This document shows positions 41,037 through 43,073 of a stretch of 64,000 nucleotides of DNA, one piece after another. Under the pieces are notes generated by a model that was not told where the DNA came from, searched no databases, and saw only the letters and a list, made by a program, of their open reading frames with translations. The DNA comes from Clostridiales bacterium (GTDB lineage Bacteria > Bacillota > Clostridia > Christensenellales > Borkfalkiaceae), in contig SVHN01000001.1 in the NCBI GenBank assembly GCA_015055805.1, positions 241,982-305,981 of the forward strand, given 5' to 3'. Each line of letters starts with the position of its first letter. The stretch's first letter is position 1. Made by a program: the position numbers and the translations under genes.

Positions 41037-42806
41037 ATGAATAAAATCAAAAAATTATTTATCTTAATTTTAAGCGCGATAACCTTGATTTGTGCAGCGT
41101 TAGGACTTGTAGGCTGTAAGGATAAAGACAATGCGATTGAACTTGTCGGGTTTAACGACGTAACGGTAGAAGGCGCGCTATACGAAGATTTCTCGGTGTC
41201 AAGTTACGTTATGGTAGTTGATACGGAAGATAACGTGTATAAAGGCACGGTGGAAGTAACCGATCATGAGAACAATCCCGTAGAGCTAACGTTCAACCGT
41301 TTTGAACTTAATTCGTTAAATCCCTATACTATTAAAGTAAGCGTACAATTGCCGAGCGGAGAAGTAAAGACGCGTGTAATTACCATAGAAGTAAAAGATA
41401 AATCCGCGCCGAAGTTTATATATTCGTCTAAATTGTATACTGGTACGGTAGGCTCTGTCTATACCTTGCCGACAGTAACGGCGACAAAGGTAACGGGCGA
41501 CGTACTTGAACCAACTATAAAAGTATATTTTATGGACGGTGGCTCGGAGAAAGAACAGACGATAACGGACGGAAAATTTACACCGCAACAAGCAGGAAAG
41601 TATACTTTGCGTTCAACTGCAATCGATAAATATAACGACGAGTACGTGAATGAAAAAACGATTGTTGTTCGTCCTCAAATGCCTGAAAAGATGCTAGAAG
41701 ACTTTGGACACGCAAACAGCGTAGAGAATGCGACAGGCGGACTAAGCTTTTTGAGCGGACCATCTACCGGAACTTATCTTGCGACCAAGACTGATAGCGA
41801 AGAAACGACCGCAAACGGCGTAGTTGCGTTTTCCATTTGGTACAGTAACCAAGTTGCCGCAGGAAGATTTAATAAAACCCAAGCGGAATTAACGGAAATA
41901 ATTAAGAAAGTTGACGCAATCACCTTGCACTTTATGATTGAAAGAGAGGGCTTTGAAGAATTTGCATTTAGATTCTTTGGCGTACAGCAAACTGTTCCCG
42001 TTGGCAAATGGACGGCAATTTGTGTTTCCAAGGAACAAATTTTTTCCAAAATGCAAGGCGCAACAGAAGAAGAAAAGATTGCGGACTTTGCCAAGGCATA
42101 TAGCGTTACAGGCTCAGGCGTATCCAAAGGCGGTTGCCGTATATTCGGTGCGCCTATCGGTGATATGACGGGCAAAGGTCTTCCAGTTTGGGTTGATGCA
42201 ATCTATTTAGGTATGCCCGAACTTGCTGAAAACGTATTAGACGATTACACGTACGGTTTAAGCACGAATAACGTCGCTTCTGGCGCAGTAAGCTTCGCGC
42301 AAGATCGTAAAGGTACGCATTATGCAAGTTTTACTGACGGCGAAGGAACGGTAGCAAACGGCGTTGTTTACGGACAAATGTGGTACACAAATCAAGTTCT
42401 TCCAGTACGTTTCAATAGAACGGAAAGCGAACTATTAAGCATTATGCAAGACTTGAAAACGCTAACTGTTAGACTTCTTGTCAAACATGGTGAAGACCAA
42501 ACGATTGTTGTAAAACTGTTTGGTGTAGCAAAAGAAATCCCCACGAACAAGTGGACGGAAATTACCGTTACTAGATCGGAAATATTATACGCTATGTCAG
42601 GCGCAACGCAAGAAGAAAAAATTGCAAAGTTTGCTGAAAATTTCTGCTCGACAGGCTCTGGCGACGCACCAAGACTGTTTAGCGCAGCTATTGCTGGATC
42701 TGGTGTAAGTTTAGATATGTATTTTGACAGTATCACTTTTGAAAAAAAGGAAATACAGGAAGATAACCCTTACGATCCGTCTTTAGACGACGTGTATATT
42801 CCGTAA
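41037..42806 (+). CDS. Multi-domain lipoprotein with two tandem modules and C-terminal tail NPYDPSLDDVYIP
   Basis: Lipobox 'ALGLVGC'; repeated 'GATxEEKIAxFAxxxxxTGSG' modules. Confidence 0.75.
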   Translation: MNKIKKLFILILSAITLICAALGLVGCKDKDNAIELVGFNDVTVEGALYEDFSVSSYVMVVDTEDNVYKGTVEVTDHENNPVELTFNRFELNSLNPYTIKVSVQLPSGEVKTRVITIEVKDKSAPKFIYSSKLYTGTVGSVYTLPTVTATKVTGDVLEPTIKVYFMDGGSEKEQTITDGKFTPQQAGKYTLRSTAIDKYNDEYVNEKTIVVRPQMPEKMLEDFGHANSVENATGGLSFLSGPSTGTYLATKTDSEETTANGVVAFSIWYSNQVAAGRFNKTQAELTEIIKKVDAITLHFMIEREGFEEFAFRFFGVQQTVPVGKWTAICVSKEQIFSKMQGATEEEKIADFAKAYSVTGSGVSKGGCRIFGAPIGDMTGKGLPVWVDAIYLGMPELAENVLDDYTYGLSTNNVASGAVSFAQDRKGTHYASFTDGEGTVANGVVYGQMWYTNQVLPVRFNRTESELLSIMQDLKTLTVRLLVKHGEDQTIVVKLFGVAKEIPTNKWTEITVTRSEILYAMSGATQEEKIAKFAENFCSTGSGDAPRLFSAAIAGSGVSLDMYFDSITFEKKEIQEDNPYDPSLDDVYIP

Positions 42807-42950
42807 GGCTATAGTGGGGGGTGGAAATGATGAAATAAAGAAAAAAACCAACTAAAAAAAGTATTACAAAGCAATCACAAATCTTATTAGAAAAAAGACA
42901 AACTCAAAACAAAAAATTAAAAATACGCTAAAAGCGTAAGGGAGAAGACA

Positions 42951-43073
42951 ATGACAACAAAAAAGAGTTATACTCCCGCAATAATTAACCTAGTATTGTT
43001 GACAAAGGACATTATGAACGAATCACAGACACCACTTAATTACGATCCGTCCTTAGACGACGTATATCTTTAA
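42951..43073 (+). CDS. 40-aa peptide MTTKKSYTPAIINLVLLTKDIMNESQTPLNYDPSLDDVYL
   Basis: SD aagggaga; same tail YDPSLDDVY as the upstream lipoprotein; absent from the ORF track. Confidence 0.75.
   Translation: MTTKKSYTPAIINLVLLTKDIMNESQTPLNYDPSLDDVYL

What the first reader, a model, noticed from the sequence alone, without database searches (positions are those of the whole stretch)
42741..43073. Locus 2 repeats the arrangement with a different tail (YDPSLDDVY)
The 589-aa lipoprotein ends ...EDNPYDPSLDDVYIP*. The next ORF, an unannotated 40-aa peptide, ends ...PLNYDPSLDDVYL*. The peptide has the same layout as the locus 1 peptide (K/R-x-Y-x-P near the N-terminus, a short hydrophobic middle, then the tail). 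So the tail sequence is locus-specific but its sharing between lipoprotein and peptide is preserved. That is what co-evolving tags would look like, and it argues against a single chance duplication.
Basis: partly seen in the sequence, partly recalled or inferred. Interest (0 to 1): 0.88.

Follow-up and report, generated by a model that had tools for sequence, protein, structure and literature searches.

The report
Phosphopeptide precursor sharing lipoprotein tail
A tiny gene in a gut bacterium appears to encode the raw material of a newly described class of phosphate-modified peptides, and its variable end is repeated, locus by locus, as the tail of the sugar-binding surface lipoprotein encoded next to it, which gives a first testable clue to what these peptides do.

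Summary
The lipoprotein at 41037-42806 ends ...NPYDPSLDDVYIP; the 40-aa ORF at 42951-43073 ends ...NYDPSLDDVYL. Among 100 peptide/upstream-protein pairs from relatives (nearly all same genus), 9 match at score >=30 (0.37 expected) and 12 at >=25 (1.4 expected), each locus with its own tail.

The peptides form a family (leader MKKxYxxPxIE...DVxxxS plus a variable acidic/aromatic tail) found in 42 of 44 genomes of the genus. They fit precursors of Linear Polyphosphorylated Peptides (LPPs; PMC13381572, 2026): YxxP leader, Ser 18-19 residues after the Tyr, and a PqqD/RRE with an HprK-like kinase and a SipW-like peptidase homolog in the genus. In two genomes the precursor gene directly precedes kinase-RRE-peptidase.

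New here: precursors are scattered beside glycan-binding secreted proteins, away from their enzymes, and about 10% have the core end repeated on the upstream protein; where its N-terminus is intact it is always a lipoprotein. Tails are conserved at protein level (pS 0.69, pN 0.25).

Inferred, not shown: the lipoprotein tail binds the same partner as the mature peptide, perhaps the downstream secreted protein. Strict co-evolution is not supported: in a near-identical strain the peptide tail appears to have changed alone.

The parts
41037..42806 (+). A2: 589-aa glycan-binding-like lipoprotein (signal peptide, lipobox LVGC, Ig-like and CBM-like beta-sandwich repeats)
   Evidence: structure model; fold matches to surface glycan-binding protein SGBP-B and CBM proteins, (overall model confidence moderate)
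42765..42803 (+). C-terminal tail NPYDPSLDDVYIP of A2, disordered in the model, absent from homologs P0003-P0006
   Evidence: residues 572-589 pLDDT <50
42951..43073 (+). 40-aa LPP-like precursor peptide MTTKKSYTPAIINLVLLTKDIMNESQTPLNYDPSLDDVYL
   Evidence: family profile A2
42951..43013 (+). leader part (residues 1-21; Tyr7, Pro9, Asp20), putative RRE-binding; boundary with the core inferred by comparison with LppA
43023..43025 (+). Ser25, equivalent by position to the phosphorylated Ser3 of the LppA core (18 residues after the leader Tyr)
43041..43067 (+). YDPSLDDVY end of the core, shared with the A2 tail
43079..45118 (+). B2: exported, non-lipoprotein 679-aa protein (or 674 aa from ATG at 43094), distant paralog of A2 (30% over about 360 residues); proposed binding partner (inference)
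45258..45404 (+). 48-aa mini-lipoprotein: lipobox FSAC, short linker, core-like end EYNDPVMDDIYA
23598..25415 (+). A1: locus-1 605-aa lipoprotein (lipobox VVSC) ending VDQDNGDHIQYWQ
25479..25619 (+). locus-1 46-aa LPP-like precursor MKRKYLPPTAYLDMLEPLDVLTTSTTGQSVDQSNGDHIQYWSDDVI (Ser24 at 25548-25550)
25633..27567 (+). B1: exported, non-lipoprotein 644-aa protein with Big_2 domain downstream of the locus-1 precursor

Best explanation
The 40-aa ORF is a precursor of a Linear Polyphosphorylated Peptide-like RiPP. Its N-terminal leader (KxYxxP...D[VI]) is held by a stand-alone PqqD/RRE protein; an HprK-like kinase phosphorylates the near-invariant Ser just after the leader; a SipW-type peptidase releases the C-terminal core. 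These enzymes sit elsewhere on the chromosome and serve many precursors in trans. Precursors sit between a membrane-anchored lipoprotein (A) and a secreted non-anchored protein (B) in glycan-use operons. In about 10% of loci the end of the core was copied by local duplication onto the 3' end of A (in locus 2 it also appears on a mini-lipoprotein) and was then kept at protein level. The most likely role is docking: the lipid-anchored tail and the free core bind the same locus-specific partner, probably B or a B-like surface protein, so the tail holds the partner at the cell and the mature peptide competes or signals. Shown: family, sequence match, machinery and its association, lipoprotein bias, protein-level conservation. 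Inferred by homology to LPP: leader binding, phosphorylation and cleavage in this lineage. Proposed only: docking and the partner.
For: Family in 42/44 genus genomes; Ser at D+5 in 110/113 parsed peptides and 18-19 residues after Tyr in 104/119, against 18 in LppA (PMC13381572). PqqD in 44/44 genus genomes, with an HprK-like kinase beside it in most neighbourhoods read. PqqD and peptide co-occur across 151 family genomes (55 both, 7 and 13 alone, 76 neither; p=8e-21, not corrected for phylogeny) and by genus (10/10 vs 2/8, p=0.0015). SipW-like peptidase homolog in 44/44. Precursor directly before kinase-PqqD-peptidase in G056 and G112. LppB's key Asn33 and Asp70 are conserved in the own PqqD and in 32/37 PqqD-like ORFs. 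Tail match p=2e-4; pS 0.69, pN 0.25; tail disordered; matched A all lipoproteins, 8/8 vs 30/55, p=0.013; B non-lipoprotein in 58/68.
Against: No maturation was observed here. In this genus kinase/RRE, peptidase and precursors are unlinked, and the SipW-like gene sits in a housekeeping context before proA, so it may have another job. No exporter or NTP transferase was tied to the system in this genus, except in the G024 cluster. The leader consensus differs from LPP in its middle (no HQxIxFET), and the leader profile did not find the LppA chain in the PDB. Only about 10% of loci show the tail match, and none of about 10 testable loci in other genera did. In a sister strain the peptide tail appears to have changed without the lipoprotein. 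Matched pairs were chosen by protein similarity, which lowers pN. No partner was tested.
Confidence: 0.6

Rival explanations
1. The lipoprotein tail is only a relic of local DNA duplication: the 3' end of the precursor gene plus the start of gene B was copied onto the end of gene A, without a function for the tail.
For: In locus 2 the DNA similarity continues past the stop through the RBS into the start of B (downstream-only score 40, shuffle maximum 31). In locus 1 a run of about 25 nt is identical. Tails are absent in most homologs.
Against: Most matched pairs have near-saturated synonymous differences but conserved residues (pS 0.69, pN 0.25), which neutral relics would not keep. Matched A proteins with intact N-termini are all lipoproteins. 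A distant homolog (P0008, 42% identity) keeps a DDxY tail.
Confidence: 0.2
2. Signalling with decoy: the mature core is an exported peptide signal, and the lipoprotein tail mimics it as a surface sponge, receptor competitor or self-recognition element, so the partner is a sensor and not B.
For: Cores are short, variable and locus-specific, as in specific signalling; several loci carry AraC-type regulators; the tail is displayed on lipoproteins and a mini-lipoprotein.
Against: No sensor kinase or receptor is consistently encoded beside the peptides in the loci read; the constant neighbours are large exported proteins (56/72 downstream, 51/63 upstream).
Confidence: 0.12
3. A sorting or assembly tag: peptide and lipoprotein tails are short motifs read by a dedicated sorting, transpeptidase or docking machine, with no RiPP chemistry involved.
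For: The tail is C-terminal, disordered, acidic and aromatic, and present on a mini-lipoprotein that has little else.
Against: The peptide's N-terminal half has a near-invariant leader-like pattern that co-occurs with PqqD/HprK; tails are too variable between loci for one machine.
Confidence: 0.06
4. The peptides are lasso peptide precursors.
For: A YxxP leader and a PqqD B1-like protein with an HprK kinase are common in lasso clusters.
Against: The B2 leader peptidase family PF13471 is absent in 44/44 genus genomes; no cyclase was seen in any PqqD neighbourhood read, though no genome-wide cyclase search was made.
Confidence: 0.02

Closest known systems
Linear Polyphosphorylated Peptides (LPP; lpp of Paenibacillus alginolyticus, PMC13381572)
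   Same: Tyr-x-x-Pro leader, conserved Ser 18-19 residues after the Tyr, variable C-terminal core, discrete RRE with Asn/Asp signature, HprK-like kinase, archaeal-type/SipW-like signal peptidase; in sister genera these genes are contiguous, some with an ABC transporter
   Different: Leader middle differs (no HQxIxFET); in this genus precursors are dispersed in glycan-use loci away from the enzymes; up to 11 candidate precursors per genome; core end duplicated on adjacent lipoproteins; exporter and NTP transferase not linked
Paeninodin-type phosphorylated lasso peptides
   Same: RRE (B1) plus HprK-like kinase acting on a small precursor
   Different: No B2 protease in the genus, no cyclase seen, Tyr not Trp in the leader motif, RRE has Asn and not Gly at the Pro-binding position
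Surface glycan-binding proteins such as Bacteroides SGBP-B
   Same: Model of A2 resembles multi-domain Ig/CBM surface lipoproteins
   Different: Gram-positive-type lipoprotein with an extra C-terminal tail copied from a peptide core; the fold match is partial (low TM over the full length)
Enterococcal sex pheromone and inhibitor peptides (from memory, not tested)
   Same: A short peptide and a lipoprotein gene sharing a sequence
   Different: There the pheromone comes from the lipoprotein signal peptide; here the shared part is the C-terminus and the peptide has a RiPP-type leader

Membership tests
Linear Polyphosphorylated Peptides (LPP) | Small precursor with conserved YxxP N-terminal leader and variable C-terminus | tested here: met
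   Tyr in 109/113 parsed, Pro at +3 in 82 and +2 in 9 of 113; variable tails (the window's locus-2 peptide has Pro at +2)
Linear Polyphosphorylated Peptides (LPP) | Conserved phospho-acceptor Ser after the leader (LppA Ser3, Tyr+18) | tested here: met
   position only: Tyr+18/19 in 104/119; phosphorylation itself not tested
Linear Polyphosphorylated Peptides (LPP) | Discrete RRE with Asn33 and Asp70 (LppB) | tested here: met
   PqqD in 44/44; Asn and Asp aligned in own PqqD; 32/37 PqqD-like ORFs
Linear Polyphosphorylated Peptides (LPP) | HprK-like kinase in the cluster | tested here: met
   adjacent to PqqD in own genome and most others read; sub-threshold HprK-related hits
Linear Polyphosphorylated Peptides (LPP) | Archaeal-type signal peptidase I (SipW-like) leader peptidase | tested here: inconclusive
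   homolog in 44/44, archaeal SPase-like (below curated cutoff), but unlinked and before proA in this genus; linked in sister genera
Linear Polyphosphorylated Peptides (LPP) | MsbA-like transporter and NTP transferase in the cluster | tested here: inconclusive
   ABC transporter next to PqqD in g3 genomes, NTP_transf_5 in G024 cluster; not linked in own genome
Linear Polyphosphorylated Peptides (LPP) | Kinase-dependent polyphosphorylation and leader cleavage | not testable with these tools
   needs expression and mass spectrometry
Lasso peptides | B2 transglutaminase-like leader peptidase (PF13471) | tested here: not met
   0/44 genomes
Lasso peptides | Macrolactam cyclase (Asn synthetase-like) in the cluster | tested here: inconclusive
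   none in the PqqD neighbourhoods read; no genome-wide search made

The most novel reading that the evidence does not exclude
A dispersed RiPP system in which one central RRE/kinase/peptidase set matures many locus-specific phosphopeptides, each paired with a surface glycan-acquisition complex, and the lipoprotein anchor of that complex carries an unmodified copy of the peptide core, so that the mature peptide and the anchor compete for the same secreted partner: a peptide-controlled surface retention switch.
Probability: 0.3. Interest if true: 0.92.

Novelty: new variant of a known kind. Interest (0 to 1): 0.8.

Why it matters
LPPs were described only in May 2026 and their authors state that the biological role is unknown (PMC13381572). 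Here an LPP-like family occurs in nearly every genome of a genus, wired one by one to glycan-use loci, with the core sequence copied onto a neighbouring surface lipoprotein. That gives a concrete, testable partner for the core (the adjacent secreted proteins), and it links a widespread but unnamed class of small ORFs in gut Clostridia, absent from Pfam and NCBIfam, to a maturation pathway.

Tried and rejected
Pfam and NCBIfam scans of ten peptides: no family; only weak thiopeptide-leader hits. Single-peptide searches of relatives found little beyond the near relative G003; profiles were needed. Chance: rejected by permutation. Pure recent DNA duplication: true in part for locus 2, rejected as a general account by synonymous saturation. 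Lasso peptide: rejected for want of B2. Direct search of the PDB with the leader profile found no LppA chain, only chance hits. Replication of tail matching outside the genus: no match in about 10 testable loci, too few to conclude (one search was the same test run with wrong strands and is discarded). A genome-contig scan for A2 gave only the G003 copy and one N-terminal fragment. A first literature search, on small proteins and tails, gave nothing. The last protein search, with the locus-1 peptide, returned only itself.

Full report
The observation. The lipoprotein 41037-42806 and the next ORF 42951-43073 end in the same nine residues, YDPSLDDVY. Locus 1 repeats the arrangement with NGDHIQYW. 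A scan of the locus also found a 48-aa mini-lipoprotein at 45258-45404 that consists of a signal peptide, lipobox and a short linker ending EYNDPVMDDIYA, a third version of the locus-2 tail.

The family. A profile of four peptides, then of 41 N-termini, found relatives in 42 of 44 genomes of the genus and in 62 of 151 genomes of the family. They share MKKxYxxPxIE.......DVxxxS followed by a variable tail rich in D, G, E, N and aromatics with few K, R, H and no C. They sit next to large exported proteins: 56 of 72 close downstream and 51 of 63 close upstream large ORFs look exported, against 254 of 590 large ORFs in the same stretches.

Within-locus matching. For 100 non-identical peptides with a co-directional upstream gene, the peptide tail was compared with its own and with all other upstream C-termini. 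Own pairs reach score 25 in 12 cases (1.4 expected), 30 in 9 (0.37 expected), 40 in 5 (0.03 expected); 5000 permutations never reached 12. Examples: NPNSDNEGTDLEDW/NPKYDNEGSDIDW (L183), NFNKDWL/NFNPDWL (L072), GGFIGDVFGGEG/GGYIEDPFGGYEG (L209), DDMVDFNFDNL/DDTVDFNYGYL (L067), GDNQVFDDDI/GDNVVNDEDI (L168). The effect is weaker for downstream genes (4 at score 25, 0.5 expected). About 10 testable loci from other genera showed none.

Selection or duplication. Over 11 matched pairs pooled synonymous difference is 0.69 and non-synonymous 0.25. Pairs were chosen by protein similarity, so the ratio is biased downward, but chance matches account for at most one or two of them, and neutral relics at synonymous saturation would have lost the protein match. 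In locus 2 the DNA similarity continues through the stop, the RBS and the first codons of the next gene, B. Since that junction belongs to the peptide gene, the likely direction is peptide to lipoprotein. Homologs of the lipoprotein at 55-70% identity end without a tail, whereas a 42% homolog ends in DPQDPHADDLYRA. In a sister strain the peptide tail reads NYNPFEDDVYF while the lipoprotein tail is unchanged; that both lie on one contig is inferred from the equal longest-contig length, 36127.

What the peptide is. The leader recalled RRE-binding leaders. PqqD (PF05402) was then found in 44 of 44 genomes of the genus, with an HprK-like kinase beside it in most neighbourhoods read; the own copy is at G000:C10:111796-112771. 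In sister genera the order is kinase, PqqD, signal-peptidase-like protein and, in some, an ABC transporter, and in G056 and G112 the precursor gene lies directly in front. Across 151 genomes peptide and PqqD co-occur (55 both, 7 peptide only, 13 PqqD only, 76 neither), and by genus 10 of 10 with PqqD have the peptide against 2 of 8 without; the genome-level p-value ignores phylogeny. The peptidase has one homolog in each of 44 genomes (two in G024), mostly in a conserved place before proA, with archaeal-type SPase I similarity. These parts match the Linear Polyphosphorylated Peptides reported in PMC13381572: YxxP leader, RRE LppB with Asn33 and Asp70, kinase LppK acting on a Ser 18 residues after the Tyr, peptidase LppS. 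Here the Ser is 18-19 residues after the Tyr in 104 of 119 peptides, and both RRE residues are present in the own PqqD. The lasso B2 protease is absent.

How it may work. The upstream protein is a lipoprotein in all 8 matched loci with an intact N-terminus, against 30 of 55 unmatched exported ones (p=0.013), while the downstream protein is exported but not lipidated in 58 of 68 (the lipobox pattern used is broad). The tail is disordered in the model of the locus-2 lipoprotein, whose fold resembles glycan-binding surface proteins. The simplest mechanism is that an anchored tail and a free mature core bind one partner, most plausibly the secreted neighbour. That step is a proposal; no interaction was tested.

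Verdict. The finding is real and generalises.

Noticed in passing
window 45258-45404: 48-aa mini-lipoprotein (signal peptide, lipobox FSAC, linker, EYNDPVMDDIYA); similar mini-lipoproteins of 49-99 aa lie next to the precursor in L064, L080, L146, L151 and L198, with other tail motifs.
   Followed up: partly
L027, L064, L144, L151, L164, L207: A second lipoprotein group upstream of precursors ends in a shared LPxAxLAENKL-like tail that does not match the peptide core but recurs across species.
   Followed up: no
L263 (G024:C40:57500-73000): Second PqqD gene beside a 128-aa ORF with the leader motif NPKLEVVRFNADDVIATS, an NTP_transf_5 protein and an ABC transporter: a possible separate RiPP cluster.
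   Followed up: partly
L199 and L211: Tandem copies of identical or near-identical precursor peptides, in L199 each in front of a paralogous large exported protein.
   Followed up: no
window 25633-27567: The downstream protein of locus 1 ends VGIDQSNSAIYIGDIFFENV, whose DQSN resembles VDQSN in the locus-1 core; best of 91 downstream pairs for that peptide but at a low score of 24.
   Followed up: no
L076, L080, L150, L162, L185, L188, L198: Several precursors follow, within about 20 nt, large proteins ending in a shared motif like LYxYGxSAxAYF, probably a common domain of unknown role.
   Followed up: no
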